NCBI RefSeq assembly: GCF_003351025.1
Contig: NZ_QPCG01000009.1
Coordinates: forward strand, 62,001 to 126,000
Direction of reading: 5' to 3'
From: Mucilaginibacter endophyticus
Lineage (GTDB): Bacteria; Bacteroidota; Bacteroidia; Sphingobacteriales; Sphingobacteriaceae
Length of the DNA stretch: 64,000 nucleotides
In this document: piece after piece, positions 1-35,349 of the stretch
Layout of the letters: each line of letters opens with the position of its first letter
Numbering within the stretch: the first letter of the stretch is position 1
The notes under the pieces: model-generated
Told to the model about the DNA's origin: nothing
The model's input: only the letters and a program-made list of their open reading frames with translations
The model's database searches: none
Position numbers and translations under genes: made by a program

Positions 1-1089
1 GAATGGAAACAACTGCTTGCCGGTAAATTTACGCCGATAGTTTTCAAGCCCGAGAAATCCCTTGAAGTAACAGGTCATCTTAAAACCTTTGGCGGCAAAC
101 CGGTACCTAACGGTAAGGTTACCTTATTTTCGACAGCAGGAGGCACCTTCATTATTGATACTGTTGCCGATGCCGAAGGAAAGTTTACTTTTAAAGATCT
201 GGTATTTAGGGATAGTATAAAATTTGTGATCCAGGCACGTACCGCTAAAGACCGCAAAAACCTCGACATCACCCTTGATAAGATAACACCGCAAGCTGTT
301 GGCCCAAATAAAAACGCACCCGATATCCAGGTAAACATCAATGATGGGGCATCAGCTTATCTTTTAAACAGCAAAAAACTCTATGACGAGCAGGTAAAAT
401 ATGGTATAGGCAACCATACCATCGTACTAAAAGAAGTGGTGATAAAAGAGAAACGGGAAAATCCATTCAAAAATTCGGCGAACCTTAACGGGGCCGGCAA
501 TGCCGATCAAACACTTACGAGTAAAGATCTGATATACGGAGGGATGCTTTCGCAGGTACTGCAGGGCCGGCTTAATTTTGTAACATTCAGAAACGGTATC
601 CCATATTCTACCCGGAGCCCAAACACGCCTATGCAAATTATACTTGACGGCGCGTATGTTGAATCGGATTTTTTGGATAACCTTACGCCAAGCGATGTTG
701 CTACTGTTGAAGTATTAAGAACAATTGGTACCACAGCAATTTATGGAGCAAGAGGTTCGGGCGGTGTTTTAGTTATAACCACCAAACGTGGTGGTGGCGA
801 TGCTGTTTATAACAAATATGCACCGGGTATTGCCACTTATGCACCTAAAGGGTATTACAGAGCACGTGAATTTTATTCGCCTAAATATGATGATCCTAAA
901 ACCAATGCGCAGATGCAGGATCTTAGAAGCACCATTTACTGGTCGCCAGGCTTGATAACCGATAAGGATGGTAATACCTCAATGAGTTTTTTTAATGCCG
1001 ACGCTAAGGGTATCTATCGTGTAATAATTGAGGGCATTGATGCCGATGGTAACTTAGGCAGACAGGTTTATAGATATAAGGTAGAATAA
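1..1089 (+). CDS. MG2/TonB-plug exported protein, 5'-truncated
   Basis: The frame is open from base 1, so this is the C-terminal part (about 362 residues) of a longer gene; the first internal ATG (226) is not a real start. It begins in a stretch (EWKQLL) matching the region just before the CarboxypepD_reg-like domain of the next gene. A CarboxypepD_reg-like beta-sandwich follows, then a TonB plug-like domain that opens with VLKEVVIKEK, carries an ILDG core and closes with VEVLR ... GGVLVITTKRGG. The last ~90 residues (REFYSPKYDD, TIYW, IEGIDADGNLG) resemble the terminal module of alpha-2-macroglobulin-like proteins. No beta-barrel follows the plug, so it cannot be a transporter alone. It is a tandem paralog of the gene at 1170. 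Function unknown; an envelope location is inferred from the paralogs' signal peptides. Confidence 0.8.
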   Translation, partial: EWKQLLAGKFTPIVFKPEKSLEVTGHLKTFGGKPVPNGKVTLFSTAGGTFIIDTVADAEGKFTFKDLVFRDSIKFVIQARTAKDRKNLDITLDKITPQAVGPNKNAPDIQVNINDGASAYLLNSKKLYDEQVKYGIGNHTIVLKEVVIKEKRENPFKNSANLNGAGNADQTLTSKDLIYGGMLSQVLQGRLNFVTFRNGIPYSTRSPNTPMQIILDGAYVESDFLDNLTPSDVATVEVLRTIGTTAIYGARGSGGVLVITTKRGGGDAVYNKYAPGIATYAPKGYYRAREFYSPKYDDPKTNAQMQDLRSTIYWSPGLITDKDGNTSMSFFNADAKGIYRVIIEGIDADGNLGRQVYRYKVE

Positions 1090-1169
1090 TATTATTTTTT
1101 TAGTGGATATTATTAATCCTTTGTGATATTTTAGAGTCATACAGGACACTTACAATCCTACTAAACCTT

Positions 1170-3965
1170 ATGAAATATCTACGTGCAATCCCCTTACTCG
1201 TATTATTGCTGCTTAACTTAAAATCATTTGCTCAAACCGATAGCAGCTTTTTGAAAAAAGCCGTTGCACTATCAAACAAACAATTAACCGACAAACCCAC
1301 TGAAAAAGTTTATCTGCATTTAGATAAGCCATTTTACAATATCACCGATACCATCTGGTTTAAAGTTTATACGGTAACCGGTGCCGAACATCAATTATCA
1401 GATATAAGCGGCGTGGTACATGTTGAACTTATTAATGCCAAAGATTCTGTTGCCCGGCGGATTAACCTGAAACTTACCAACGGTGTGGCCTGGGGCGATT
1501 TTGTATTGCCCGGCAATTATAAAGCCGGCAGCTACCGTCTGAGAGCATACACCAACTGGATGCGAAACCAGGGAACTGCAGCCATGTTTGATCAGCGGAT
1601 CCAGGTAAACGGCCGCCCGGTTTTCGGAGCAAATCAACCACAAAACCAACCTGCTACAGAAAATAAACCTGACGTTCAGTTTTTTGCAGAAGGTGGAAGC
1701 CTGGTGAATGGTCTAAGATCTAAAATAGCAGTTAAAGTAATTGGCCAAAACGGACTTGGGCGGGATGCCAAAGGCTCAATAACCGATAATGACGGTAACG
1801 AAGTTGCTGAATTTGAAACCACTCACCTCGGTATGGGCATATTTGCGTTGCTTCCACGGGCAGGTAAAACCTATAAAGCGAAAATAGCAACAGACGGCAT
1901 TCCTTTTTTTACTGTTGATCTTCCCAAAGCCGGCGATGAAGGTTTTACCATGACAGTGAACAATCGGCTTACTGACAGTATTAATATCAAATTAACAACC
2001 TCTTCTAAAACCCTCGGGGCAAAGCAGCACGCTTACTACTACCTGGTTGGGCAGTCGGGAAGCAAGGTTTATTACACTACTTCTTTCAAACTTGAAGACC
2101 CCGGTTATTCATTCAAGATTGAAAAGAAACGCTTTCCATCAGGGATAGCCCAGTTTACCTTATTTGGTGCCGATGCAGAACCACTTAATGAAAGGATAGC
2201 GTTTATACGCGCCAACGACACATTGAAACTTAAGTTGAATATAGCCGCTCAAAAATTCGCGACGCGAAACGCAGTATCTGTGGTTATGGAGGCCGCTAAT
2301 AACGCCAGCAAGCCGGTAGTTGGCGCTTTTTCTGTATCTGTAATAAACGAGAGCCGTATTCCTTTTAATCAAAATGCCGAAAGCACCATACTCAATAACC
2401 TGCTCCTGACATCCGACCTTAAGGGATATATTGAGCAACCTAATTACTATTTTAATAACATTACTGATAAAACCGAAAGCGACCTGGATATGCTCATGCT
2501 TACACAGGGCTATCATGGTTTTGAGTGGCGCAAAACTTTAAGCGAAAAACAGGAACAACCAGATTTTAAAGCCGAAAAATCCCTGAGCCTTGCAGGGGCA
2601 CTACAAACCCCGGGGGGAAAGCCGATACCCAACGGCAAGGTTACATTGCTGGGCAACAGGGAAAACTTTTATGCAGATACCGTAACCAACCTGAATGGTG
2701 ATTTTAAATTTGAAGATGTTGATGTTTCAGACACTTCCCACCTGCTGGTTCAGGCCCGCAAGCAAAACGATGGAAAAAATGTAACCATATTTGTTAAGCA
2801 GACCGATTATCCAAAAGTTGAAAAATTAAGCGATATAACAACCAAATGGCAGCCGCCTTCAATATCGGAGTTGATGGCATCTTCTATTCAGCAAAAAAAA
2901 GACTCACTGCAAAACGGGGTTGTGCTTAATGAAGTAGTAATAAAGGATAAAAAGCAATTTAAACCTACTCAGTTTAACGGCAACAACTCCTTCCAACAGC
3001 GCGCTGTTAATATGGCTAAATTAAGAGTGGACAAAGACGCTTCATTAAAGGATGCATTATACATGAATGAGCCCCTTGCTCATATCAACGTATCTGCGGC
3101 CAAAAATGACATTCTTAACGGCAATGGAACAATTATAGTTGACGGAGCAGCATTAGACGCGTCATTGCTTTCAGTTTACAGAGTAGATGAAATAGAAAGT
3201 GTAAGTTTAATATGGCAGCCACCTATTAGTGATTCAAACCATCCGCTAATTTATATCACTACCAAACGATACGCAGGCACAGATACAACTGTTTTAAAAG
3301 AGGTTACTATCCGCTCTACCAAAACAAATAAAGCAAACTATAGAGGTTACTCTGCAGGAAAATTAGGCCCACCACCAGACCAAGTTATTATGGGCGAAAA
3401 ACTTGTGGGATGCACTAAACTATCCGACTGTCTGAGAAACCAGATTTTTGGGGTAATATTTGATGTAAACGGAAATCCCATCAATAGCCGCGACAATAAA
3501 AAAATGGCGATTCTCCTGAATGGTGCCGTATTAGATGGCAGCGTTTTGAATAGTATTAGCGCGGCGGATGTTTATAGCATAGAAGTTTTACGCGGAGCTT
3601 CCTATGCAGTAGCGATTGGTTCTGAATTTCCGGGAGGTGCCCTTGCTATTACCACCAAACAAGGTGGAGATAATTATGTAACCGGTGCCAGTTCGTCACT
3701 AGGTGTAATTACTTATCCTTTTAGAGGTTTTTATAAAGCCCGTACATTTTACTCGCCTAAATACACTGCAGCAAATGTTAATACCAATACCCCTGATTAT
3801 CGTACCACAATTTTCTGGGAGCCCAACATTGTTACTAATGAAACGGGCGAAGCATCCTTCAGTTATTTCAACGCCGATACCCGTGGTATTTACCGGGTAA
3901 CCATTGAAGGCATCGATGCCAATGGTAATCTGGGCAGACAGGTTTACAGGTATAAAGTGGAATAG
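1170..3965 (+). CDS. MG2-domain exported protein with two tandem TonB plug-like domains
   Basis: 931 aa. A signal peptide (about residues 1-21, ending FAQ) is followed by an MG2-like domain (about 40-140; EKVYLHLDKPFY, YRLRAYTNWM), further MG-like modules, a CarboxypepD_reg-like domain (about 475-545), then two plug-like units. Unit 1 (about 585-705) starts LNEVVIKDKK, has IIVDGA and ends IYITTKR. Unit 2 (about 706-830) starts LKEVTIRSTK, has ILLNGA and ends ALAITTKQGG. The last ~90 residues match the C-terminus of the preceding gene. There is no TonB-receptor barrel and no thioester motif. An 80-bp gap after the upstream paralog suggests co-transcription, and a terminator-like hairpin lies just downstream (3991-4035). 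MG2/plug proteins of this sort are common in Bacteroidota but functionally uncharacterised. Confidence 0.85.
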   Translation: MKYLRAIPLLVLLLLNLKSFAQTDSSFLKKAVALSNKQLTDKPTEKVYLHLDKPFYNITDTIWFKVYTVTGAEHQLSDISGVVHVELINAKDSVARRINLKLTNGVAWGDFVLPGNYKAGSYRLRAYTNWMRNQGTAAMFDQRIQVNGRPVFGANQPQNQPATENKPDVQFFAEGGSLVNGLRSKIAVKVIGQNGLGRDAKGSITDNDGNEVAEFETTHLGMGIFALLPRAGKTYKAKIATDGIPFFTVDLPKAGDEGFTMTVNNRLTDSINIKLTTSSKTLGAKQHAYYYLVGQSGSKVYYTTSFKLEDPGYSFKIEKKRFPSGIAQFTLFGADAEPLNERIAFIRANDTLKLKLNIAAQKFATRNAVSVVMEAANNASKPVVGAFSVSVINESRIPFNQNAESTILNNLLLTSDLKGYIEQPNYYFNNITDKTESDLDMLMLTQGYHGFEWRKTLSEKQEQPDFKAEKSLSLAGALQTPGGKPIPNGKVTLLGNRENFYADTVTNLNGDFKFEDVDVSDTSHLLVQARKQNDGKNVTIFVKQTDYPKVEKLSDITTKWQPPSISELMASSIQQKKDSLQNGVVLNEVVIKDKKQFKPTQFNGNNSFQQRAVNMAKLRVDKDASLKDALYMNEPLAHINVSAAKNDILNGNGTIIVDGAALDASLLSVYRVDEIESVSLIWQPPISDSNHPLIYITTKRYAGTDTTVLKEVTIRSTKTNKANYRGYSAGKLGPPPDQVIMGEKLVGCTKLSDCLRNQIFGVIFDVNGNPINSRDNKKMAILLNGAVLDGSVLNSISAADVYSIEVLRGASYAVAIGSEFPGGALAITTKQGGDNYVTGASSSLGVITYPFRGFYKARTFYSPKYTAANVNTNTPDYRTTIFWEPNIVTNETGEASFSYFNADTRGIYRVTIEGIDANGNLGRQVYRYKVE

Positions 3966-3990
3966 TTTAAGTTGGAAGTCCGTAGTGGGA

Positions 3991-4035
3991 AAGTCCGAAA
4001 GATTTGAGCAATGCTTATTTCTTTCGGACTTTTTC
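3991..4035 (+). terminator. Rho-independent terminator after the MG2/plug pair
   Basis: AAGTCCGAAAG (3991-4001) pairs with CTTTCGGACTT (4021-4031), and a T-rich run follows on the + strand. It sits 25 bp past the stop of the 931-aa gene. The convergent CBM9-like gene ends at 4047, so it may work in both directions. Confidence 0.7.
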
Positions 4036-4046
4036 TTTTAAAAAAC

Positions 4047-4916
4047 TTATTTGGAGCTTAAATAATATTTCTCCCAAAAATCAACCGATTTTGACATTTC
4101 GCCGGCTCCTCCTGCTGCTCCACGGCCCATGCCGCCGCCCATGCCTCCACGGCCACCCCTTCCTCCACGACCGCCACCCATGCCACCGCCCATTCCACCT
4201 CTGCCACCACGACCGCCGCCGCCAAAGCCGCCGCCATCATGATCGCCTTCTCCTGCCCCACCACCGGTTGGCCGTTGAAAACCATTTATTTTAAAATTGA
4301 AAGCCCATTCACTTTTAAAAGTATCGTTACCGGCATGAAAAAAACTTAATGGAATAGCAGCCTCATAAACCAGGTCGCCGTTGGCATCATAATTTATGGC
4401 AGTTTTAATACCATAGGTGTTGGATGTGGTGATCATGTCACTCTCTATATCCTTAAAGCCAACAACCTTAATATATCTTAACTTGGTTATGCGTTCGCGC
4501 ATCAGCTCGTCACGATCTGCCTGAGTAATCTCTCCGTTATCATCTTTGGGCTTTGGAAACTCGGGCTTTTCGCCAGGGGCGGCTAACGGAAAAGTAAGGG
4601 TAAAACTATCTTTCTTTTTTCCTTTGGGATCTATAGTTAAAGTAATACCGGCATTCAGCACTTTCATTTTATCAAGCCTGTCACTCACCCTGATGGCGGC
4701 ATACAGGTAATCCTTATCATTAGCCAATGCATAATTTAACTTCTTTTCGTCGTTATAATAACGCAGACTATCGCCCCACTCCTTCAGGTCGCCGTCAACA
4801 TTGATGTTAGCAGGCGGGCCTTGCAGATTGTTTTTTGTGTTTTGAGCAGATGAATGATGAGCGGTTAAAAGTTGTGCAGCTAATGCCAAAGCAAAAGCCG
4901 GGTATGCCTTTTTCAT
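4047..4916 (-). CDS. Secreted CBM9-like (DOMON fold) protein with Gly/Arg-rich tail
   Basis: 289 aa with an N-terminal signal peptide (cleavage near SAQN, about residue 25). Residues ~35-215 resemble the family 9 carbohydrate-binding fold: INVDGDLKEWGD near the start, YLYAAIRVSD, and a late stretch YEAAIPLSFF. Residues ~220-272 are a low-complexity run of GGM and RGG-type repeats, and a short normal C-terminus (VDFWEKYYLSS) follows. The tract is coded by GGC/GGT/CGT-rich DNA and creates long spurious ORFs on the other strand. CBM9-like domains bind sugar termini or accompany outer-membrane proteins; the ligand here is unknown. It is convergent with the MG2/plug genes and divergent from clpS. 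Confidence 0.7.
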   Translation of the reverse strand: MKKAYPAFALALAAQLLTAHHSSAQNTKNNLQGPPANINVDGDLKEWGDSLRYYNDEKKLNYALANDKDYLYAAIRVSDRLDKMKVLNAGITLTIDPKGKKKDSFTLTFPLAAPGEKPEFPKPKDDNGEITQADRDELMRERITKLRYIKVVGFKDIESDMITTSNTYGIKTAINYDANGDLVYEAAIPLSFFHAGNDTFKSEWAFNFKINGFQRPTGGGAGEGDHDGGGFGGGGRGGRGGMGGGMGGGRGGRGGRGGMGGGMGRGAAGGAGEMSKSVDFWEKYYLSSK

Positions 4917-4999
4917 GTGAAATTTTTTAGGGGTTTGTGTGTAACATGATTTTTAAGACCATGGAACACGATTTTAACACTTTTATTATTGTTTTTGAG

Positions 5000-5007
5000 T
5001 AAATTTG
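5000..5007 (+). promoter_or_regulatory. Candidate Bacteroidota -7 box for clpS
   Basis: TAAATTTG fits the Bacteroidota -7 consensus TAnnTTTG and ends 9 bp before the clpS ATG. No good -33 TTTG at the usual ~19-bp spacing was seen, so this is a half-site call. Confidence 0.4.
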
Positions 5008-5016
5008 TAGTTACGT

Positions 5017-5298
5017 ATGCCAACCGAAGTACAGGAAGAAACATTTACCCTCGAAGAGTTACTTGCAGGACTTAAAGAGACACATCGTTTGATACTCTGG
5101 AACGATGATTTTAACACTTTTGATCACGTGATCCACTGTATGATGAAGTACCTGGATTACTCTGAACCGCAAGCCGAAAAGATAGCTTGGAAAGTACACA
5201 ATGAAGGCAAATGCGCCGTACTTGAAGGCTCCTTTACCGAGATGGAGATCTACCGCAAAATCCTTCAGCAGGAAGGGTTAACAGTTTCTGTTGAATAA
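5017..5298 (+). CDS. clpS: ATP-dependent Clp protease adaptor ClpS
   Basis: 93 aa, the usual size for ClpS. The fold signature is clear: LILWNDDFNTFDHV (the ND/T/H residues that line the N-degron pocket), then YSEPQAEKIAWKVHNEGKC and a conserved C-terminal helix. ClpS binds the ClpA N-domain and delivers N-end-rule substrates with bulky hydrophobic N-termini to ClpAP in the cytoplasm. It is divergent from the CBM9-like gene. The next gene may begin inside its stop region but more likely starts 20 bp after it. Confidence 0.93.
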   Translation: MPTEVQEETFTLEELLAGLKETHRLILWNDDFNTFDHVIHCMMKYLDYSEPQAEKIAWKVHNEGKCAVLEGSFTEMEIYRKILQQEGLTVSVE

Positions 5299-5317
5299 AA
5301 CGCTAACCATAACCGGC

Positions 5318-5866
5318 ATGATAAAAAGAACATTCATACTTTTTTTAATAGTCGGTTGGGCCAGCCTCACCGCCTGCGGCCAGGGGAAAAACCTGAAACT
5401 GGTATTTATCCGTCATGCCGAAAAGCCCGAAGTAGGAGATAACCTTTCCTGTGCCGGCTTTAACCGTTCGCTTAAACTGCCTGAGGTTTTAAAAGCCAAA
5501 TTTGGTTTGCCCGATCATATTTATGTACCGGCAATGCACCAGGGCAAATCAACCCCGAGGTCGCGTATGTTCCAAACTATCTCGCCATTTGCTGTAAAAT
5601 ACAACCTTACCATCAACAGTAGTTTTGAGGAAGAAGATGATAACGGCATGGCCAAGGAGCTTACATCAAAAAAAGGCACCATCCTTATTGTTTGGGAACA
5701 CAACGAGCTTAAACCTTTGCTGAAAGCTTTAGGCCTTAAAGTTAAAGACCTGCAATGGCCCGATAATGATTTTGACAGCATCTGGATAGTGACCTTCAAA
5801 AAAGGTAATCCATCGTTAACACAGGATAAGGAAGGAATTACACCCGCTGCAGGATGCAGTTTTTAA
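5318..5866 (+). CDS. Histidine phosphatase family lipoprotein
   Basis: 182 aa from the ATG at 5318. A TTG at 5291 would add nine residues and overlap clpS, but the ATG places a lipoprotein signal exactly at the N-terminus (MIKRTFILFL ... LTAC, lipobox Cys ~21). The catalytic motif FIRHAEKPE (RHxE) marks the histidine phosphatase (phosphoglycerate mutase-like) superfamily. The second conserved His is probably in VWEHNELKPLL, late in the protein. It is short for the family and envelope-anchored, so a periplasm-facing or surface phosphomonoesterase is likely; the substrate cannot be read from sequence. It runs in the same direction as clpS and may be co-transcribed. Confidence 0.75.
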   Translation: MIKRTFILFLIVGWASLTACGQGKNLKLVFIRHAEKPEVGDNLSCAGFNRSLKLPEVLKAKFGLPDHIYVPAMHQGKSTPRSRMFQTISPFAVKYNLTINSSFEEEDDNGMAKELTSKKGTILIVWEHNELKPLLKALGLKVKDLQWPDNDFDSIWIVTFKKGNPSLTQDKEGITPAAGCSF

Positions 5867-8074: not shown

Positions 8075-9904
8075 ATGGCTAAAACAAGAAATATCAAACC
8101 CGAGCAAAAGATCTCATTCAAAGAACGGCTGTCTGCACTAAGTAACCTTCCTGAATTTTTCGGGCTGGTTTGGCAAAGCAGTCCGGGCAAAACAACAATG
8201 AGCTTTCTGCTGCGTATTATCCGTTCGGCTATGCCGGTTGCCCTATTGTACGTTGGCAAGCTAATCATCGACCAAGTGGTATTGCTTAACCGCCACGGGG
8301 GAAGTCAGCACGAATTATGGAAATTGGTTATCATCGAATTTTTGCTGGCTATAGTAACCGACGGCTTAAACAGGATGATAAGCCTGATAGATAGCCTGCT
8401 TGGCGATCTTTTTTCTAACTATACATCCATGCGCATCATGCGCCATGCGGCCACACTTGATCTCGAGCAATTTGAAGATTCTATATTTTATGATAAACTG
8501 GAACGGGCAAGGCAGCAAACCGTAGGCCGCACGGTGCTTTTATCGCAAGTAATGAGCCAGATACAAGATTTTATATCCATCGCTTTTCTGCTTACCGGCT
8601 TATTAACTTTAAACCCCTGGTTAATCCTGCTATTACTCGTATCCATTATCCCGTCATTTATGGGCGAAAGCTATTTTAACAGTCAAAATTACGCTTTAAC
8701 AAGGAGCCAGACTCCTGAAAGAAGAGAGCTGGATTATGTACGCTACCTGGGCGCAAGCGATGAAACGGCAAAAGAAGTTAAGATTTTTGGCCTTGCTGAT
8801 TTTATCATCAACCGCTTTAAAACGCTATCAGATAAATTTTATACCGATAATAGTAAACTTGCTGTAAGACGCTCGGCCTGGGGCACTTTCTTTTCTGTTT
8901 TGGGTAGCGCCGGCTATTATACGGCTTATGGGTTCATTATTTATCAAACGGTTACAGGTAAGTCTTCGGTAGGTACACTTACTTTCCTTGCCGGGTCTTT
9001 CCGGCAGCTTAGCAGCCTGATGGAAAATTCGTTAAACCGTTTTACATCGGTATCACAGGGAGCCATCTACCTCAATGATTTTCATGAGTTTTTTGAGATC
9101 AAACCCAAAATTACTGTAGCCTCATCTCCTTTGCCATTTCCAAAACCGATAAAGCAAGGCTTCACATTTGAAGATGTAGGCTTCAAATATAACAATACCG
9201 AATCATGGGCCAACCGGCACCTGAACTTTACTTTGCAACCCGGCGAAAAAATAGCATTGGTTGGTGAAAACGGCGCAGGCAAAACTACACTTGTTAAATT
9301 ACTTGCCCGCTTATATGACCCTACTGAGGGGCGTATCCTGCTGGACGGCACCGACCTGCGAAACTACGACATTGCCGATCTCCGGCTAAACCTCGGTATT
9401 ATTTTTCAGGATTATATCCGTTACCAGATGAGCTTTTCGCAGAATATCGCGGTTGGAAATATTGATGAGCAGGCCAATATTGAATTGATCCGCAAGGCAG
9501 CACATGAGAGCCTCGCCGATACATTGGCTGCCAGACTTCCATTGGGATATGACCAATGGCTGGGCAGGCGGTTTAACGAGGGGGTGGAACTATCTGGCGG
9601 GGAATGGCAAAAAGTTGCGCTGGCCAGGGCTTATATGAAAGAGGCACAAGTGCTTATTCTTGACGAGCCAACAGCCGCTCTTGATGCCCGTGCTGAGTAC
9701 GAGGTTTTCCAGCGTTTTTCGTCTTTAACCCGGGGCAAATCGGCAGTGCTTATTTCACACCGGTTTTCAACAGCAAGGCTGGCCGACCGGATCATTGTAT
9801 TAGAAAGGGGCAGTATTCTTGAAGCCGGCACACATGAACAGCTTATGGCCAACAATGGCCGCTATGCCGAACTTTTCAACTTACAGGCAGCCGGATATCA
9901 ATAA
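8075..9904 (+). CDS. ABC exporter, fused permease/ATPase
   Basis: 609 aa half-transporter of the type IV exporter class. An N-terminal membrane domain (about residues 40-320, six predicted helices) is followed by a nucleotide-binding domain. Walker A GENGAGKTT is at ~396, the signature LSGGEWQKVALARA at ~505, Walker B LILDEPTAALD at ~527, and the H-loop ISHRFST follows. A homodimer or a dimer with a partner half is expected; no partner gene is adjacent. The substrate cannot be told from sequence: lipids, peptides and drugs are all possible. It stands alone behind a long upstream region. Confidence 0.88.
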   Translation: MAKTRNIKPEQKISFKERLSALSNLPEFFGLVWQSSPGKTTMSFLLRIIRSAMPVALLYVGKLIIDQVVLLNRHGGSQHELWKLVIIEFLLAIVTDGLNRMISLIDSLLGDLFSNYTSMRIMRHAATLDLEQFEDSIFYDKLERARQQTVGRTVLLSQVMSQIQDFISIAFLLTGLLTLNPWLILLLLVSIIPSFMGESYFNSQNYALTRSQTPERRELDYVRYLGASDETAKEVKIFGLADFIINRFKTLSDKFYTDNSKLAVRRSAWGTFFSVLGSAGYYTAYGFIIYQTVTGKSSVGTLTFLAGSFRQLSSLMENSLNRFTSVSQGAIYLNDFHEFFEIKPKITVASSPLPFPKPIKQGFTFEDVGFKYNNTESWANRHLNFTLQPGEKIALVGENGAGKTTLVKLLARLYDPTEGRILLDGTDLRNYDIADLRLNLGIIFQDYIRYQMSFSQNIAVGNIDEQANIELIRKAAHESLADTLAARLPLGYDQWLGRRFNEGVELSGGEWQKVALARAYMKEAQVLILDEPTAALDARAEYEVFQRFSSLTRGKSAVLISHRFSTARLADRIIVLERGSILEAGTHEQLMANNGRYAELFNLQAAGYQ

Positions 9905-10193: not shown

Positions 10194-12650
10194 ATGATCA
10201 TTAAAAAAGGTTTGCTTTTTCTCCTGCCCGCTATTTTTTTCAGGATGGTTGCTTTTGGTCAAACAGTAAGTCCTGAAAGCAGAATCTTCCCGCTTTTACA
10301 ACAATTGGGAGAGAAATTTCCGCAGGAAAAAGTGCACCTGCATTTGGATAGAAATTATCACTCAAGCGGCGATACCTTACGCTTTAGGGCTTATGTAGTA
10401 AATGCCCAAAACAATCAGCTTACAGACCTAAGCAAAGTATTATACATTGATCTTTTAAACAATCAGGATTCCCGTGTTATCGAACTCCGGTTTCCTATTG
10501 ATGATGGCGGCGTATCCGGTTGGGTTGCCCTACCAGACAGCTTGGAAAAAGGCACTTATACCTTACGCGCCTACACCGCCTGGATGCGAAATTTCAAACC
10601 TGAATTATTTTATCGTACCACCTTAAAAATAGACAACCCGGCAAATTCAAAACAGAATATCTCCAGAGAAACCCAAAAGACAAATAGTAAAGAACTCCAC
10701 AACATTCAATTTTTCCCCGAAGGTGGTGATCTGGTAAACGGTATTACATCAGTTATAGCATTTAAAGCCATTGGCAATACGGGATTGGGCGAAGATGTGT
10801 CAGGAACAATTACCGATGAAAGCGGAAAGATATTGTCAAACCTTCAATCTTCATTTGCGGGCATGGGCAGGTTTAATCTTACACCTACTCAAGGCCATAG
10901 TTATGAAGCCCATGTCAGGTTTAAGGATGGGGTTACAAAAAAGATCACTTTACCCCCTGCCTTACCCTCCGGATATGCTTTGGCTGTAAATAATCAGGAT
11001 AAAGCTAATGTGATTGTACAAGTGATGGCCGGTGGCTTAAACACTACTGAACCGGTTTGGCTGGCCGCTCAGGCAAACAATAAGCTGATCAGCTTAACAA
11101 AACTTAATCTTACTGGCAATCAGGGCAGTATTTCCATCCCAAAACGAACGCTACCCACCGGCATTGTTCAATTCACCCTTTTTAATAACCTTTCAGAACC
11201 TAAAGCCGAACGTTTGATATTTATAGACCGGCATGATCAGCTACGGTTAAATGTAGGTACGCCAAAAGTATCATCAACAAATTCTGTTATTCAAATCCCG
11301 ATTGAGGCTACAGATCAGTTAGCCAATCCGGTTAGCGCAAATTTTTCAGTTGCTGTTGTAAACAGAAAAGCTCCGGTTGATAGCACAACCTCAACTCCTT
11401 CTATTTTATCCGATCTGCTGTTGACATCCGATCTTAGTGGCTACATTGAATATCCCGACCATTACTTCAAAAGCCGGGAACCGCAAATCAGCTTACAGCT
11501 CGATAATTTAATGCTGACACAGGGTTGGCGAAGATTTATATGGAAAGATCTTTTAGCCGGTAAATTTCCGGATGTGATTTACCCGGCTCAAACACAACAA
11601 ACGTTAAGCGGCAAAATACAAACAGGCAAAGGCTCAGCTTTATCCAAGCAAAATGTTATGCTGGTATCAAAAGGCGATTCGGCATTTACAATACGCACCG
11701 TGACCGATAGCAAAGGAAGGTTTACTTTTAATTTGCCCGAACTGCAGGAGCAACATCAATTTTCGGTAATAGCATCTACAGATAGTAAAGATATCAACAT
11801 TATTCTTGATCAATTTGCACCTGCCGATTCAACCAGCCATGTTATAAAGGAAGAACTGTCAAATTACCCTGCACAATCCCCAACTAATCAAGCGCACACC
11901 ATCAAAAACGGAACGCGCCAGTTAAGTGAAGTTGTGGTGAAATCAAAAAAACTAAGCGCCACTGAAAAGGCTGTCGCGCCATCGGCAAACTTTAATGGTG
12001 CAGGAAATGCCAATCAAATCATAACCTATAAAGACCTCAACCATTGCGATAACCTGGAAATTTGTTTGGAGGGAAGATTAGTGGGCGTATATTTTAGAAT
12101 AAAAAAAGACCCGTTTAGCCATGGCTATACAAAAGTGCCTTACAGCACCAGCGGATTGAACAAACCAATGTTATTTGTGCTTGACGGAGTTCCGATACAG
12201 CCAGGCCAGATATCCTTAAACAGCATACCTGCACGCGATGTGCAGAGTATAGAAGTACTGCGTTCAGGCTCATTAATTGCAGCTTATGGCCTGGCTGGCA
12301 GCGGCGGTGTGTTGGTGATCACCACGAAAAAAGGTGGCATTAATTATAATGAGATGGATGAGCCGGAGGATATCACGGTTACATCAACACCTGGTGTAAT
12401 TAACTTTACTTATAACGGTTATCAAAAATACCGGGAATTTTATGTGCCGAAGTATCCTGTAGCCGATAGGACAAAAAGGAATTCGCCCGAAACTCTGTTT
12501 TGGAACCCGGTAGTAAAAACTAATGATAAAGGACAATCGGTATTGGAGTTTCCTGTTAGCGCTGAGGTAAAAAATATAGCTCTTACGATTGAAGGTATTT
12601 CAGACGATGGAAAAATAGGTTATCAATACCAGGAATATGCTATTAAATAA
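10194..12650 (+). CDS. MG2/TonB-plug exported protein
   Basis: 818 aa. Signal peptide (ends FGQT), MG2-like domain (EKVHLHLDRNYH, YTLRAYTAWM), MG-like modules with the recurring FFPEGGDLVNG stretch, a CarboxypepD_reg-like domain (about 465-545), one plug-like domain (about 580-725; LSEVVVKSKK, VLDGV, VEVLR, GGVLVITTKKGG) and a terminal alpha-2-macroglobulin-like module. No beta-barrel. The last module is more diverged than in the other copies. The next gene follows by 13 bp, so the two are probably one transcript. The same two parts occur as a single fused protein at 31837-35349. Function unknown. Confidence 0.85.
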   Translation: MIIKKGLLFLLPAIFFRMVAFGQTVSPESRIFPLLQQLGEKFPQEKVHLHLDRNYHSSGDTLRFRAYVVNAQNNQLTDLSKVLYIDLLNNQDSRVIELRFPIDDGGVSGWVALPDSLEKGTYTLRAYTAWMRNFKPELFYRTTLKIDNPANSKQNISRETQKTNSKELHNIQFFPEGGDLVNGITSVIAFKAIGNTGLGEDVSGTITDESGKILSNLQSSFAGMGRFNLTPTQGHSYEAHVRFKDGVTKKITLPPALPSGYALAVNNQDKANVIVQVMAGGLNTTEPVWLAAQANNKLISLTKLNLTGNQGSISIPKRTLPTGIVQFTLFNNLSEPKAERLIFIDRHDQLRLNVGTPKVSSTNSVIQIPIEATDQLANPVSANFSVAVVNRKAPVDSTTSTPSILSDLLLTSDLSGYIEYPDHYFKSREPQISLQLDNLMLTQGWRRFIWKDLLAGKFPDVIYPAQTQQTLSGKIQTGKGSALSKQNVMLVSKGDSAFTIRTVTDSKGRFTFNLPELQEQHQFSVIASTDSKDINIILDQFAPADSTSHVIKEELSNYPAQSPTNQAHTIKNGTRQLSEVVVKSKKLSATEKAVAPSANFNGAGNANQIITYKDLNHCDNLEICLEGRLVGVYFRIKKDPFSHGYTKVPYSTSGLNKPMLFVLDGVPIQPGQISLNSIPARDVQSIEVLRSGSLIAAYGLAGSGGVLVITTKKGGINYNEMDEPEDITVTSTPGVINFTYNGYQKYREFYVPKYPVADRTKRNSPETLFWNPVVKTNDKGQSVLEFPVSAEVKNIALTIEGISDDGKIGYQYQEYAIK

Positions 12651-12663
12651 GAGCAACAGGGTC

Positions 12664-13953
12664 ATGAAAAAAGCACTAACTATCATTTTTTGTCTTTTTG
12701 TTATTCATGCTTTTGGCCAGCAGCAAATTAGCGGTAAGGTAACCGATGAAAAAGGCAGCCCGCTGGTAAACGCAAGCGTATTCGTTGCTGAATCAAAAAA
12801 CGGCACAATGACCGATACCAGCGGGCATTTTAAACTCACGTTGCAGGCCAAAGGGAATTTCAAAATTGTAGTTTCTTATATCGGCTATAAAACCACCGCC
12901 AGGGCATTAAACACCAGTTCTATTTCATCAAACATTGATTTTGTTTTAACTCCCGTAAGTCATCAACTAAAAGACGTAATCATTACGTCTAAAGCCAATG
13001 ATAACTGGAAACGTTGGGGAGCAATGTTTACAGAACAATTTATCGGCACATCGGCATTCGCCGCACACTGTACCATTACCAATCCGGAAGCGATTGGTTT
13101 TGATTATGACAACGCCAAACAGGAGCTTCATGCCTACGCCTCCGAACCATTAATTATCAGGAATGAAGATCTTGGCTACCTGGTATCGCTGACACTGGTT
13201 GACTTTACATTTTACACATCAAAAAACGAAGTCGATTACCAGGGGTATTATCTGTTTAAAGAAATAGACGGAAACGAACGGAAGAAGGCTACCTGGGAGC
13301 AAAACAGGCTGAAAGCTTATTCATTGTCGTTTATGCATTTTACCCGGGCGTTATACAACGACAAATTAAAAGAAGAAGGTTTTGAAGTGCGGCAATTTAG
13401 CGCGGGAAACATCAGGGAAAAAGAAAGAATTGAAAAACTTTATGCACAAAAACTTAACACATACCTGGACTCGGCAAAAATTGAGAAAAACAAACTCTTA
13501 GACACCAATCAAATAGCTTCCAAAATATTCAACAAAGACTCGTTGCGGTATTACAAAAAAATACTGTCTGATAAATCCGAAATAAAAATGAGTGAGCCAT
13601 TACGGGCAAAAGACATTTCTGCAAAATCAGAAAATAACATTACCTTAAATTTTAAAGATCAGCTGCAAGTCGTTTATAAAAAGATTAAAGAACCGGAAGA
13701 ATATTATAACTACCGTAACCACGCCGCCCTAACCACCGAAAGCACAACGGTGCAAAGCAGCGGCATAAGTACAAGTCAGCTGGTTATGCCCAACAAACAG
13801 TATCCTTTCACCGAGCTACTGCTGGAGAAAGGCATCCCCGTAGAAATTACAGAAAATGGCTATTACAACAATACCAACCTGTACCTGAACGGCTTTTGGG
13901 GATGGTGGGAAAAAATGGCAACCAAATTGCCTTATGATTACGAACCTTATTAA
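12664..13953 (+). CDS. CarboxypepD_reg-domain exported protein, partner of the MG2/plug protein
   Basis: 429 aa from the ATG at 12664, which puts a clean signal peptide (MKKALTIIFC ... FGQQ) at the N-terminus; a longer frame from 12637 would overlap the previous gene. Residues ~20-105 are a CarboxypepD_reg-like domain (ISGKVTDEKGSPL, SYIGYKT). The remaining ~320 residues match residues ~110-385 of the 1170-aa fused protein, including FTEQFIG, the LGYLV core and the closing DYEP motif, after which this protein stops. Bacteroidota proteins of this type are exported and uncharacterised. The fused counterpart suggests physical partnership with the upstream MG2/plug protein. Confidence 0.82.
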   Translation: MKKALTIIFCLFVIHAFGQQQISGKVTDEKGSPLVNASVFVAESKNGTMTDTSGHFKLTLQAKGNFKIVVSYIGYKTTARALNTSSISSNIDFVLTPVSHQLKDVIITSKANDNWKRWGAMFTEQFIGTSAFAAHCTITNPEAIGFDYDNAKQELHAYASEPLIIRNEDLGYLVSLTLVDFTFYTSKNEVDYQGYYLFKEIDGNERKKATWEQNRLKAYSLSFMHFTRALYNDKLKEEGFEVRQFSAGNIREKERIEKLYAQKLNTYLDSAKIEKNKLLDTNQIASKIFNKDSLRYYKKILSDKSEIKMSEPLRAKDISAKSENNITLNFKDQLQVVYKKIKEPEEYYNYRNHAALTTESTTVQSSGISTSQLVMPNKQYPFTELLLEKGIPVEITENGYYNNTNLYLNGFWGWWEKMATKLPYDYEPY

Positions 13954-31836: not shown

Positions 31837-34800
31837 TTACTGAACATTATACCGATACACCAACCGCCCTAAATTACCATCCTCATCAATGCCCTCAATA
31901 ACTATGCGATACGAGCCAGCTCCGTCGGCGTTGAAATAATTAAACAGCGCCTGGCCATTTTTATCTGTTATCAGCTCCGGTTGCCAATAAATAGTACTCC
32001 GCAAATCGGGGCGGTTACCGGCTTGTTCAAGATTTTCATATTTAGGAGAGTAAAACACACGCGCCTTATAAAATCCGGGCACCGAAATTGGTAATATCCC
32101 GGTTGATGTGATTTCTTTTTCGGTAAGCCCCCCTTTTGCTTTTGTGGTTATCACGATTACTCCATGGCCTCCCCGCGCTCCATATATTGCCGCATTGGCA
32201 TTGTAAAAAAACTCTACTGTTTCTACATCCGAGGCGCCTATAAAATCAAGCGAACCTCCGCCAGGTATTGGGTTCGCCGAAATACGACTATCTATTGCCA
32301 CCCCATCCAAAATTACTAAACCATCAAAATCACTCCTTAACATTGCGTATGCTCGTCCGCCGTGTACCCTGCTTTCTACCATTTGAGTTAACGAACCTGA
32401 AACAGGAAGCTGCCCCAGTTGTATCACCTGATCGGCACTACCCGGCCCTCCTAAAGCCGAAGAGCGATATTCATTCTTTTTAACGGCCTTGATCTTCACC
32501 TCTTTCAGCATTTTTATTTTGCTATACTTCAAATAATCGTCTTGCCGTAGCTTGTTATTTTCAAGATAGTTCGTCATTGATAAATTAATATCATTGGGTA
32601 CGACGTTTAAGCCGAATGACGATACTGGCAGTTTTTGATTGTTTTTGTTATAAGTCAATCTTGTTGAATTATCGCCTTTAGCTGTAACAGCCTGTAAAAT
32701 GAACCTGCCGGTATCGGTAAAGAACAAGTTACTGAATGCAAAATCGCCCCTATCGTCTACTGGTTGACTTAACACCGTTGTTGGTTGCGAAGAGATCAAA
32801 GAAACAGTGCCTTCATGCATGGCGCTCCCTCCCGAACGCTTTACATTGCCGCTTATTTCCAAACCCTTTTCAGGTTGGTATGCTATAGCCGGATAAGAGC
32901 TGCTTAATAAAGGCTTCCATTTAAAACCACGATAACCATTAGTAAGCATTACCAAATCCAGGTTTTTCGTTGTTTCGTCATTCACATTGGTAAAATAATA
33001 GTTGGGTTGTTCTACATTTCCCTTCAGATCTGAAGTTAACAACAGATCAGTTAGTATAGTGCGTTCTGAATTTCCAACTACCTGAACTTTATTTTCATCT
33101 ATAACGGATACCGAAAAATGGCCAACCGACGGATCACCCGCCCTGTTCTTTACATTCAGGCTGATATCAACCCTTTCCCTTTTTTTATAATCTGCTTTGG
33201 GACTGTTAATGGCCAGGCTCAATTGGTCGTAGTTTTGCACAAAAATCAGGCGTTCGCAAAGGGGCTCATTAGCGGCAGAAAATAATGTAATGGTAGCTAT
33301 CCCGGTTTTTAAACGCCGCTTTAAAATATCACGTGTTATTGTCTGACTATCTAACCTGCAGGCAATGGTTGAAGCTGTGCCGCCGGAATAAATGAGTAAT
33401 GTAAACTCCCTTCCTTTGTTTTGCTGGTAAAAAGCATCAGCAGCATTTATTTTAACAATAGCACGGGGAATTTCACTATTATCAACAGATAAGCTAATTC
33501 CATTTTCCATAGGCATTGGAAGATTGACAGTGTTTTTTGTTCCGTCTGCATAATTAAGTTCGGCTTTATAGCTTTTACCAGGTTGGGCTTTCAGGTAAAA
33601 AGATCCCATCCCCAGGTGCGATGAAGCAAATGTGGCTACCTGATTATTTTCATCATCGGTAATAATCCCGCTGATATTTACACCCGTTCCATTGGCGCCA
33701 ATAGCCTTGAAGGCTATTTTAGACTGAATGCCGGTAATCATATTGCCGCCTTCGGCAAAAAACTGCACATCAATTTTATTGGCGACAACCGGCAACGGCG
33801 CTTTAGCAGCGCTTTCGGCTATTTTATTATTGATCGATCCAATTTTAATTTCCCGGTCAAAATAATTGTTACTACCCTGGTTTTGCATCCATTTGGTATA
33901 CGCCCGAATATGATAATTCCCTTTAGGCAAAGTATCCGGCAGGGCAAAATCCCCCCAGGCCACACCATCAGTTATCTGTAGTTTAACTGACTGATCGATT
34001 CTGTTTGCTGTATTGATCAACTCGGCATGCAACACACCGCTTATATCCGATAGCTCGTGGCGATCGCCCGCGGTTATATAAGCTTTAAAGTAAACTGTAT
34101 CGCCGGCTGCATAGTAGGGTTTATCAAAATGCAAATAAACTTTTTCGGCAGTATATGAAGCATTGTAATTTCTAAGCTTATTTATAACATCGGTCAATCC
34201 TGGTTTTTCATTTACAGCGCGAGTATTTAAAGGCTCATAATCAACTGGCAAAAGTTCGGCTACCCGGTTATTGCCCCATGCGCCGCTATATGTTACGCTA
34301 TTAGGATCAAGCAGGGCCCCATTATCATCAAACAGGGCGTAAGACAGGTTAAAATTCAAAACCGTTACATCATGGTTAGCGGTACTGTTTATACTATTCA
34401 TTTGCCCGCGTTTCGTAAAACGATGATCTTCATTATAAGTGATATGGAACGAATCAAAATCACAACCGAGGGCATGTACGCCAATCTGATCGGTTTTAAC
34501 CATCATTTCATCTTCATTTAAAGGATAGGTCATCAGTATTGGGCGCCCTCTTTTGCTTAATAGTGATTTAGGCAGGTCCCGTCGTTCAGGGTTAGCATAC
34601 TGCAATACACGAAACCCTTCCTCATCCAAATGTTTAGCCTGCAGTGCACGTAAAAAATGCATAGCAGATCCTTTATAAACCTGTAATCTTGCCCTTTCCC
34701 AGTCTTTCTGTTGTGATGGCGTACCTTTTAACTCTTCAAACAGCACAGAACCTTCATAGTGCAGTTTCCTGTTTGAAATGTCTTTATCATCATAAATAAA

Positions 34801-35349
34801 ATTTGTGATAAGATACTTTACCCGGTAACCAAGCCCACGATTTTCAACAGTTAAAAAATCAACGGAAGATGCAGCCAGTGTTTTCGTATCATCGTTGTAG
34901 GCAAAATCAAGCATTTCCGGATTCAGAATTTTACATTGATCGGCCAGTTCCGATTTGCCTAAAAACTGCTCTTTAAAAGTTGTTAAATACTGCGCACGAT
35001 TGGGGTCGGTGTGCTGTTTTACAATTACCTCTTTTAAAGCATAGGTTTTAGGCGACATGATAATATCGGGCAAAACCATATCACTACCGGTTACCGTTAT
35101 GTTTTGTTTATAGGTTTCAAACCCAACAATGGAAACTACCAGCTCATATTTACCATTTTTAGCGTCGACAAGGGTAAACGTTCCTTCGGGTGTGGTTTTT
35201 GTCCCTACAGTAGCATTACTTAAAAATACACTTGCGTTCGCGATAGTTTTTTTATCTGTTGCGTTGATAACCCTGCCTGTTATCCTGGTTTGAGCCAGGC
35301 ACCAAAAAGGAGAAACCAGCAAATAGCACAGAAACAATTTCTTTAACAT
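31837..35349 (-). CDS. Fused CarboxypepD_reg + MG2 + TonB-plug exported protein
   Basis: 1170 aa. Signal peptide (ends CLAQT), CarboxypepD_reg-like domain (about 22-105), then a ~280-residue region (FKEQFLGKSELADQC ... LLPVDYEPL) matching the separate 429-aa protein at 12664, directly followed by the MG2/plug architecture: MG2 (EKVYLHFDKPYY), MG-like modules (FFAEGGNMITG), a second CarboxypepD_reg-like domain, a plug (LKEVKIKAVK, VILDGVAID, VETVEFFYNANAAIYGARGG, VIVITTKAKGG) and the alpha-2-macroglobulin-like end (IEGIDEDGNLG). No barrel. It joins in one chain what 10194 and 12664 make as two, in the opposite order. Function unknown. Confidence 0.85.
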   Translation of the reverse strand: MLKKLFLCYLLVSPFWCLAQTRITGRVINATDKKTIANASVFLSNATVGTKTTPEGTFTLVDAKNGKYELVVSIVGFETYKQNITVTGSDMVLPDIIMSPKTYALKEVIVKQHTDPNRAQYLTTFKEQFLGKSELADQCKILNPEMLDFAYNDDTKTLAASSVDFLTVENRGLGYRVKYLITNFIYDDKDISNRKLHYEGSVLFEELKGTPSQQKDWERARLQVYKGSAMHFLRALQAKHLDEEGFRVLQYANPERRDLPKSLLSKRGRPILMTYPLNEDEMMVKTDQIGVHALGCDFDSFHITYNEDHRFTKRGQMNSINSTANHDVTVLNFNLSYALFDDNGALLDPNSVTYSGAWGNNRVAELLPVDYEPLNTRAVNEKPGLTDVINKLRNYNASYTAEKVYLHFDKPYYAAGDTVYFKAYITAGDRHELSDISGVLHAELINTANRIDQSVKLQITDGVAWGDFALPDTLPKGNYHIRAYTKWMQNQGSNNYFDREIKIGSINNKIAESAAKAPLPVVANKIDVQFFAEGGNMITGIQSKIAFKAIGANGTGVNISGIITDDENNQVATFASSHLGMGSFYLKAQPGKSYKAELNYADGTKNTVNLPMPMENGISLSVDNSEIPRAIVKINAADAFYQQNKGREFTLLIYSGGTASTIACRLDSQTITRDILKRRLKTGIATITLFSAANEPLCERLIFVQNYDQLSLAINSPKADYKKRERVDISLNVKNRAGDPSVGHFSVSVIDENKVQVVGNSERTILTDLLLTSDLKGNVEQPNYYFTNVNDETTKNLDLVMLTNGYRGFKWKPLLSSSYPAIAYQPEKGLEISGNVKRSGGSAMHEGTVSLISSQPTTVLSQPVDDRGDFAFSNLFFTDTGRFILQAVTAKGDNSTRLTYNKNNQKLPVSSFGLNVVPNDINLSMTNYLENNKLRQDDYLKYSKIKMLKEVKIKAVKKNEYRSSALGGPGSADQVIQLGQLPVSGSLTQMVESRVHGGRAYAMLRSDFDGLVILDGVAIDSRISANPIPGGGSLDFIGASDVETVEFFYNANAAIYGARGGHGVIVITTKAKGGLTEKEITSTGILPISVPGFYKARVFYSPKYENLEQAGNRPDLRSTIYWQPELITDKNGQALFNYFNADGAGSYRIVIEGIDEDGNLGRLVYRYNVQ

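What the first reader, a model, noticed from the sequence alone, without database searches (positions are those of the whole stretch)
1..3965. Expanded family of alpha-2-macroglobulin-like proteins with an inserted TonB plug and no barrel
Four genes (1-1089 partial, 1170-3965, 10194-12650, 31837-35349) share the order MG2, MG modules, CarboxypepD_reg, plug, macroglobulin-like C-terminus. A plug without a barrel next to a macroglobulin scaffold suggests a role other than transport, such as occluding or capturing a partner barrel, surface display, or an envelope defence or adhesion function. The family is known to annotators but not characterised.
Basis: partly seen in the sequence, partly recalled or inferred. 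Interest (0 to 1): 0.7.

Follow-up and report, generated by a model that had tools for sequence, protein, structure and literature searches.

The report
Macroglobulin frame with swappable TonB plug
Many Bacteroidota carry uncharacterised envelope proteins in which the gate piece of a nutrient transporter, without its channel, sits in a macroglobulin frame where related proteins carry their protease trap, and in some of these genes the gate piece has been swapped between strains like a cassette.

Summary
Four macroglobulin(MG)-plug genes are present; 31837-35349 is on the minus strand, 1-1089 is cut by the window edge, and 1170-3965 has two tandem plugs. The genome (nearest named relatives: Mucilaginibacter) has nine members; full chains occur in several Bacteroidota families.

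The chain matches the MG ring of A2M/C3/C5 up to the end of MG6 (best Z about 21-22) and then stops: no thioester (0 of 139 chains), no barrel. By alignment ranges, the two halves of MG6, where relatives carry bait region or anaphylatoxin, enclose a SusC-like N-terminal module: CarboxypepD_reg-like domain, Ton-box-like LKEVxIK, plug. Plug homology is solid (profile-profile E 4.7e-26).

New here: (1) in 5 of 25 close pairs (four gene loci, including window gene 1170-3965) the slot has synonymous divergence of 0.67 to saturation while the frame on both sides averages 91-97% identity: an exchanged cassette; (2) in the genus, 14 of 60 C39-peptidase/VKOR regions hold a member, always co-directional, and 47 of 60 hold Cys-rich GG-leader ORFs; (3) a partner domain is fused or adjacent in many loci.

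Best reading: a periplasmic, possibly TonB-coupled frame whose plug is the partner-specific part. The mechanism is unproven.

The parts
1..1089 (+). P0002: 3' part of a 918-codon-frame member (whole gene about G000:C30:60372-63089); one plug, Ton-box-like LKEVVIK at 427-447
1170..3965 (+). P0001: 931 aa member with two tandem plug modules
1239..2564 (+). P0001 MG ring up to the first half of MG6 (residues 24-465)
   Evidence: rows of C3 chains of about 640 residues align to 24-465
2565..3704 (+). P0001 insert in the MG6 slot (residues 466-845): CarboxypepD_reg-like, linker, plug 1, plug 2
2521..3720 (+). segment exchanged relative to the M. kameinonensis orthologue (60-base windows: 83-100% identity outside, 38-92% and mostly under 80% inside); versus genome G013 only about 2790-3270 (linker, box 1, plug 1)
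2925..2945 (+). Ton-box-like motif 1 (LNEVVIK, residues 586-592)
3294..3314 (+). Ton-box-like motif 2 (LKEVTIR, residues 709-715)
3705..3962 (+). P0001 second half of MG6 with its lead-in, end of chain
10194..12650 (+). P0003: 818 aa member with one plug; Ton-box-like LSEVVVK at 11922-11942
12637..13953 (+). partner protein: CarbopepD_reg_2 plus about 300 aa without a credible Pfam match; overlaps the end of P0003 by 14 bases
31837..35349 (-). P0004: 1170 aa fusion of a partner-like N-terminus and an MG-plug chain
34225..35349 (-). P0004 partner-like N-terminal part (residues 1-375)
32488..32508 (-). P0004 Ton-box-like LKEVKIK (residues 948-954), in a low-confidence linker of the model
32137..32454 (-). 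P0004 plug (about residues 966-1071)
8075..9904 (+). ABC exporter directly upstream of P0003 (neighbour; functional link not shown)

Best explanation
These are periplasmic macroglobulin-frame proteins. The frame (MG1-MG6, no thioester part) holds a SusC-type N-terminal module (CarboxypepD_reg-like domain, Ton box, plug) in the slot where A2M has its bait region and C3/C5 their anaphylatoxin. I think TonB binds the Ton box and pulls on the plug, and that the plug, which recognises a particular envelope partner (a barrel or a secreted peptide), is the exchangeable specificity part while the frame carries the response. Shown: domain identity and order, absence of barrel and thioester, a conserved Ton-box-like motif in a low-confidence linker, cassette exchange at four gene loci. 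Inferred: insertion inside MG6 (from alignment ranges plus recalled domain borders), periplasmic location, TonB binding, pulling, and what the partner is.
For: Frame: models of P0004 and P0001 match E. coli and Salmonella A2M, C3 and C5 (best rows Z about 19-22), with the last residue aligned to C3 826 / C5 820, and rows of C3 chains of about 640 residues (taken as the beta chain; Z about 13) aligned to about residues 24-465 of P0001. 115 of 139 chains end exactly at this domain; 0 of 139 have a thioester-like motif. Plug: E 4.7e-26; 125 of 139 chains with one plug, 8 with two, 2 with three, 4 with none detected. Ton box: 125 of 158 plug-bearing chains carry [LIM]x[EDQ][VI]x[IV] near the plug start, against 1.65% of random 70-residue stretches of the MG part; it aligns with the TBDT motif; in Bt1763 the Ton box DEVVVTG follows a CarboxypepD-like NTE, and its deletion gives a growth defect on levan like loss of SusD (PMC7782687, passages seen); the linker has low pLDDT. 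Exchange: 5 of 25 close pairs have slot dS at least 2.5 times the higher flank, and in no pair is the MG part the outlier.
Against: TonB binding was not tested. 33 of 158 chains lack the motif by this pattern, among them 10 of the 16 plug-bearing chains listed from other families. The plug is about ten residues shorter than in TBDTs around the IRG strand (consensus). MG6-half sequence matches are weak: A2M_BRD in 6 of 29 fragments (best E 0.028) and A2M in 2 of 29 (best E 0.0018), with other Ig-type families as good or better (Big_13 in 7 of 29, Arrestin_C in 5 of 29). The plug was not folded alone. 17 of 25 close pairs show no raised slot divergence.
Confidence: 0.35

Rival explanations
1. 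Plug in trans: the plug docks into the periplasmic mouth of specific TonB-dependent receptor barrels and blocks or gates them, for instance as protection against bacteriocins or phages that enter through them. Expansion and cassette exchange would follow receptor diversity.
For: True plug homology; exchange confined largely to the slot; nine members in the genome; some members sit inside GG-leader peptide export operons, where bacteriocin systems often keep their immunity gene (recalled).
Against: No plug-less barrel candidate seen in the genome (not all candidates were scored). The plug is about ten residues shorter around the IRG strand. Barrels with their own plug leave little room.
Confidence: 0.25
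2. Plug kept only as a binding fold: the slot domain binds a soluble or surface partner and TonB plays no part.
For: Distant members often lack the strict Ton-box pattern (10 of 16); flanking residues differ from TBDT boxes.
Against: The L-x-E-V-x-I/V core is among the best-conserved positions of the region, in an otherwise poorly conserved linker.
Confidence: 0.2
3. Accessory factor for export, folding or surface hand-over of Cys-rich GG-leader peptides.
For: 14 of 60 C39-VKOR regions in the genus contain a member, all on the same strand as the C39-VKOR gene, 11 of them directly next to it; 47 of 60 such regions contain a Cys-rich GG-leader ORF, against 1 and 0 of 20 control stretches.
Against: The window's genome has no C39-VKOR match at E 1e-20 and the window no GG peptide by the pattern used, yet it has nine members; 0 of 20 C39-VKOR regions from other genera hold a member; 3 of the 14 regions with a member have no GG peptide found. 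So this is at most a secondary use. The query locus was itself one with members.
Confidence: 0.12
4. TonB decoy: the Ton box competes with receptors for TonB and tunes import.
For: Conserved Ton-box-like motif, several members per genome, and two or three plugs in some chains.
Against: Does not explain the plug, the frame or the cassette exchange.
Confidence: 0.08

Closest known systems
Bacterial alpha-2-macroglobulin (E. coli/Salmonella A2M, PDB 4rtd, 4u48) and complement C3/C5
   Same: MG ring up to the end of MG6; an insert in MG6 (domain borders recalled)
   Different: Slot filled by a plug module instead of bait region or anaphylatoxin; no thioester; chain ends after MG6
SusC/RagA TonB-dependent transporters (for example Bt1763, RagA)
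   Same: CarboxypepD_reg-like domain, Ton box and plug in the same order
   Different: No barrel; shorter plug; family motif NLNGxGNADQVI in place of the receptor consensus; embedded in a macroglobulin frame
BamP of the F. johnsoniae BAM complex (NF053692; PMC12611786, passages seen)
   Same: Weak match over residues 1-120 of the fused member P0004 (29.4 bits, cut-off 230)
   Different: The match covers little more than the common CarboxypepD-like domain; not filed as BamP
C39/GG-leader bacteriocin-type export systems (NF047798 leader, HlyB/HlyD-type)
   Same: Some members in the genus lie in such operons
   Different: The window's genome has no C39-VKOR match

Membership tests
alpha-2-macroglobulin superfamily | MG2 domain | tested here: met
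   PF01835 in the three uncut window chains: 34.3 bits (over the 32.8 cut-off) in P0004, below it in P0001 (30.2) and P0003 (24.9)
alpha-2-macroglobulin superfamily | multi-MG ring fold | tested here: met
   E. coli A2M 4rtd: Z 21.2, rmsd 2.0, 217 aligned (P0004) and Z 21.9, rmsd 14.3, 302 aligned (P0001); 4u48 with P0001: Z 21.7, rmsd 5.2, 315 aligned
alpha-2-macroglobulin superfamily | bait region or anaphylatoxin in MG6 | tested here: inconclusive
   slot present by alignment ranges; its content is a plug module; A2M_BRD weak in 6 of 29 fragments
alpha-2-macroglobulin superfamily | thioester/TED and following domains | tested here: not met
   0 of 139 chains with a thioester-like motif; 115 of 139 end exactly at the MG6 end and the rest within 7 residues
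TonB-dependent transporters (SusC/RagA) | plug domain | tested here: met
TonB-dependent transporters (SusC/RagA) | Ton box before the plug | tested here: met
   125 of 158 by pattern, by sequence only
TonB-dependent transporters (SusC/RagA) | CarboxypepD_reg NTE before the Ton box | tested here: inconclusive
   PF13620 at 22.9-24.0 bits in P0001-P0003, below the 32.3 cut-off; not reported at that place in P0004
TonB-dependent transporters (SusC/RagA) | beta-barrel | tested here: not met
   no barrel family hit in the window chains (hits to SusC models cover only the N-terminal part); chains end in the MG6 half
TonB-dependent transporters (SusC/RagA) | binds TonB | not testable with these tools
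   needs experiment or complex modelling
GG-leader bacteriocin-type systems | GG-leader precursor and C39 peptidase at the locus | tested here: not met
   for the window: no GG peptide by the pattern used; own genome: no C39-VKOR match at E 1e-20

The most novel reading that the evidence does not exclude
A TonB-powered macroglobulin: the proton-motive force, through TonB pulling a plug held in the bait slot, drives the conformational change that a protease triggers in A2M, and recombination swaps plug cassettes in a constant frame to change which envelope partner is handled.
Probability: 0.2. Interest if true: 0.9.

Novelty: new variant of a known kind. Interest (0 to 1): 0.62.

Why it matters
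It joins two well-studied machines, the macroglobulin frame and the TonB-coupled plug, in one chain. If TonB acts on it, the family would be a TonB client that is not a transporter. The cassette exchange makes partner specificity directly testable by swapping natural alleles. The family occurs in several Bacteroidota families and, as far as I searched, is unstudied.

Tried and rejected
Surface lipoprotein or type IX cargo: 7 of 139 lipobox-like starts, no sorting-domain model hit in the window chains. BamP relative: only the common domain matches. Plug-less barrel partner: none seen among 56 scored SusC matches (of 174 candidates) and 91 TonB-barrel matches (116 of 134 candidates scored) in the own genome. 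A conserved OMP_b-brl_3 receptor lies upstream of one subfamily in 9 loci, but a plug-like stretch is found weakly in two copies (L047, L076; E about 2e-4), so it is probably not plug-less. GG peptides as the general function: rejected for the window. TIGR04149 was an insensitive probe (6 of 41 genomes). Sequence proof of the MG6 halves stayed weak. PDB sequence search with P0001 alone gave nothing at E 0.01. Partner protein: the credible solved relatives match only its CarboxypepD-like domain. VIA lists were filled by macroglobulins, so they do not test the plug or partner folds. Mutual exclusion of members and a TlpA-like thioredoxin in the C39-VKOR operons: 27 of 29 loci with the thioredoxin lack a member, but 66 of all 80 do, so I make nothing of it. 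In the plug tree the receptor plugs did not form one clade at the root used, so it says nothing on the origin of the family's plug.

Papers: searches for macroglobulin with plug/TonB/Bacteroidetes terms showed no paper on this architecture; one search listed 15 of 50 papers, none of the 15 with the word macroglobulin; two searches listed 1 and 2 unrelated papers. On the peptide systems: 4 papers listed, none opened, none found. Only open-licence papers are held. Passages of two papers were seen; none was read whole.

Counts and drops: 57 pairs with MG identity of 80% or more were taken and 56 could be computed; 4 with MG nucleotide identity of 99.5% or more were left out, 30 of the rest have MG dS under 0.5, and 5 of these were dropped as fragments or second copies of one gene, leaving 25. 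A slot dS above the formula's range was set to 9.99. The C39-VKOR set is 60 of the 87 genus places (the best matches, two fragmentary places skipped, the weakest not taken) and 20 of the 40 other-genus places (chosen by hand); the query locus is one of the 60, and several contigs were short. The control is 20 stretches 100 kb away on larger contigs of the same genomes. No significance test was run on these counts.
Full report
What is there. The window (G000:C30:62001-126000) comes from a 7.5 Mb genome; the closest named records are Mucilaginibacter. It holds four members of one family: P0002 (1-1089, cut by the window edge), P0001 (1170-3965), P0003 (10194-12650) and, on the minus strand, P0004 (31837-35349). 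Five more lie elsewhere in the genome, and 39 of 41 genomes searched (the own one, its genus and its class) match the family profile; because that profile includes the plug, part of the matches in distant genomes may be receptor plugs alone. In a phylum sample 248 of 296 genomes match, but many of the listed matches cover only the plug region in long receptor-like frames, so 248 is not a count of members. Of the 30 loci fetched with that search (the best matches), 24 gave a full MG-to-C-terminus chain and 22 of these 24 have a detected plug, in nine family codes (f1, f15, f18, f20, f21, f24, f25, f26, f38).

Plug without barrel. A plug profile made from the family finds 21 other, receptor-type ORFs; the match lies near the N-terminus, mostly at residues 90-250, as a receptor plug should. 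Profile-profile comparison aligns 129 columns, from the Ton box to the end of the plug, at 99.7% probability and E 4.7e-26. SusC/RagA-type structures are the only solved relatives found with the family profile at E 0.01 or better. Of 139 full chains, 125 carry one plug, 8 two, 2 three and 4 none detected. Window gene P0001 has two; plug 1 is more diverged (31 bits) than plug 2 (93 bits). In a tree, plugs of multi-plug chains mostly sit nearest to plugs of the same position in other chains, in at least two separate sets (L041/L204 against the P0001 set).

Frame. AlphaFold models of P0004 (pLDDT 80.5) and P0001 (78.1) match E. coli and Salmonella A2M, C3 and C5 (best rows Z about 19-22; Z differences under 1 are ties; rmsd 2-14). 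The last residue aligns with C3 826 and C5 820, while C3 chains of about 640 residues, which I take for the beta chain, align to about residues 24-465 (Z about 13). From recalled domain borders of C3/C5, 465 lies after the first half of MG6 and the C-terminus is the end of its second half, so residues about 466-845 fill the slot of the anaphylatoxin or bait region. Sequence support is weak: A2M_BRD in 6 of 29 fragments before the slot and A2M in 2 of 29 after it, with other Ig-like families scoring as well or better. No thioester-like motif in 139 chains; 115 end exactly at this domain and the other 24 within 7 residues.

Ton box. LKEVxIK precedes the plug. Its core positions are about as conserved as the best plug positions (L 93%, E 81%, V 91%), in a linker that is otherwise poorly conserved and of low model confidence. 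The pattern occurs near the plug start in 125 of 158 plug-bearing chains, against 1.65% in MG stretches and 1.65% in shuffled segments; of the 16 plug-bearing chains listed from other families 10 lack it. In Bt1763 the Ton box is DEVVVTG, preceded by a CarboxypepD-type NTE, and deleting it gives a growth defect on levan like loss of SusD (PMC7782687, passages). TonB binding of the window family remains untested.

Cassette exchange. Over window positions 1-5800, P0001, the end of the gene before it and the genes after it are 83-100% identical, per 60-base window, to the M. kameinonensis SCK record (L037), except about 2521-3720, where identity is 38-92% and mostly under 80%. MG part dS is 0.14, last domain 0.33, and the slot as a whole is beyond the formula's range (one search agrees by parts). 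Against genome G013 only 2790-3270 (linker, box 1, plug 1) is strongly diverged, while the plug 2 stretch is 88-98% identical. The gene just upstream shows no such effect in the same strains (MG 93.0%, slot 91.6%, last domain 93.5%). In all, 5 of 25 close pairs (MG dS under 0.5) have slot dS at least 2.5 times the higher flank, at four gene loci (slot dS 0.67, 0.80 and three beyond range; frame 91-97% identical); 3 more lie at 1.5-2.5 times; in 2 pairs slot dS is less than half that of both flanks; the MG part is never the outlier and the last domain is so in 2 pairs. Raised synonymous divergence confined to the slot points to recombination and not to fast protein change. P0004 shows no swap against L084 or L087. 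In the three P0004 pairs the plug has the highest dN/dS of the parts that could be computed (0.30-0.37, below 1, on few changes in two of them).

Neighbours. The partner gene 12637-13953 overlaps P0003 by 14 bases and is homologous to the N-terminus of P0004. In the window and the 76 fetched loci, 22 of 120 MG-bearing ORFs are fused to a partner-like part, and 12 separate partner ORFs were found, 7 of them within 200 bases of a member (3 co-directional, 4 convergent) and 5 more than 5 kb away; the fusion argues for joint action. In the genus, 60 regions around a C39-peptidase/VKOR/thioredoxin gene were compared with 20 control stretches: a member in 14 against 1; a fused member in 7 against 0; a GG-leader ORF with at least three cysteines in 47 against 0. 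All 14 lie on the same strand as the C39-VKOR gene, 11 directly next to it, and in at least 7 of the 14 between it and the C39 ABC exporter gene. Of 20 such regions from other genera, 0 hold a member and 13 hold GG peptides. In the 76 family loci themselves 7 have such a peptide ORF. The window's genome has no C39-VKOR match. So this is a secondary use by some members.

Verdict. The sharper picture is a macroglobulin frame with a SusC N-terminal module in the trap slot, and a slot that is exchanged between strains in some genes. What it does is open; my best reading is a TonB-coupled periplasmic adaptor with an exchangeable specificity part (0.35), with a plug acting in trans next (0.25).

Noticed in passing
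L042, L050, L052, L055, L057, L067, L086 (for example L050:8329-8568, L052:9658-9885): Cys-rich GG-leader peptide ORFs in loci that hold macroglobulin-plug genes; of 7 scanned, 6 hit the NF047798 bacteriocin leader model at E under 0.001, 4 of them over its cut-off.
   Followed up: partly
L200-L259: A C39-VKOR-thioredoxin gene, in 65 of 120 genus genomes, often with GG-leader peptides, TlpA-like proteins, a C39 exporter and in some loci glycosyltransferases or DUF6625: possibly a disulfide-rich, perhaps glycosylated peptide system.
   Followed up: partly
L047, L049, L069, L074, L075, L076, L082, L083, L098: An OMP_b-brl_3 receptor (about 830 aa) one or two genes upstream of one subfamily, in several with DUF2911, DUF3810 and penicillin amidase genes downstream.
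   Followed up: no
G003:C8:142123-147309 and G019:C18:55041-59768: Open frames of 1749 and 1849 codons that appear to hold two family matches each: apparent fusions of two members.
   Followed up: no
family plugs, between Ton box and plug core: Conserved motif NLNGxGNADQVI in the consensus of 125 family plugs, not in the consensus of the 21 receptor plugs compared.
   Followed up: no
window 18504-21275 (-): An ordinary-looking TonB-dependent receptor (the match G000:C30:80654-82063 lies in it).
   Followed up: no
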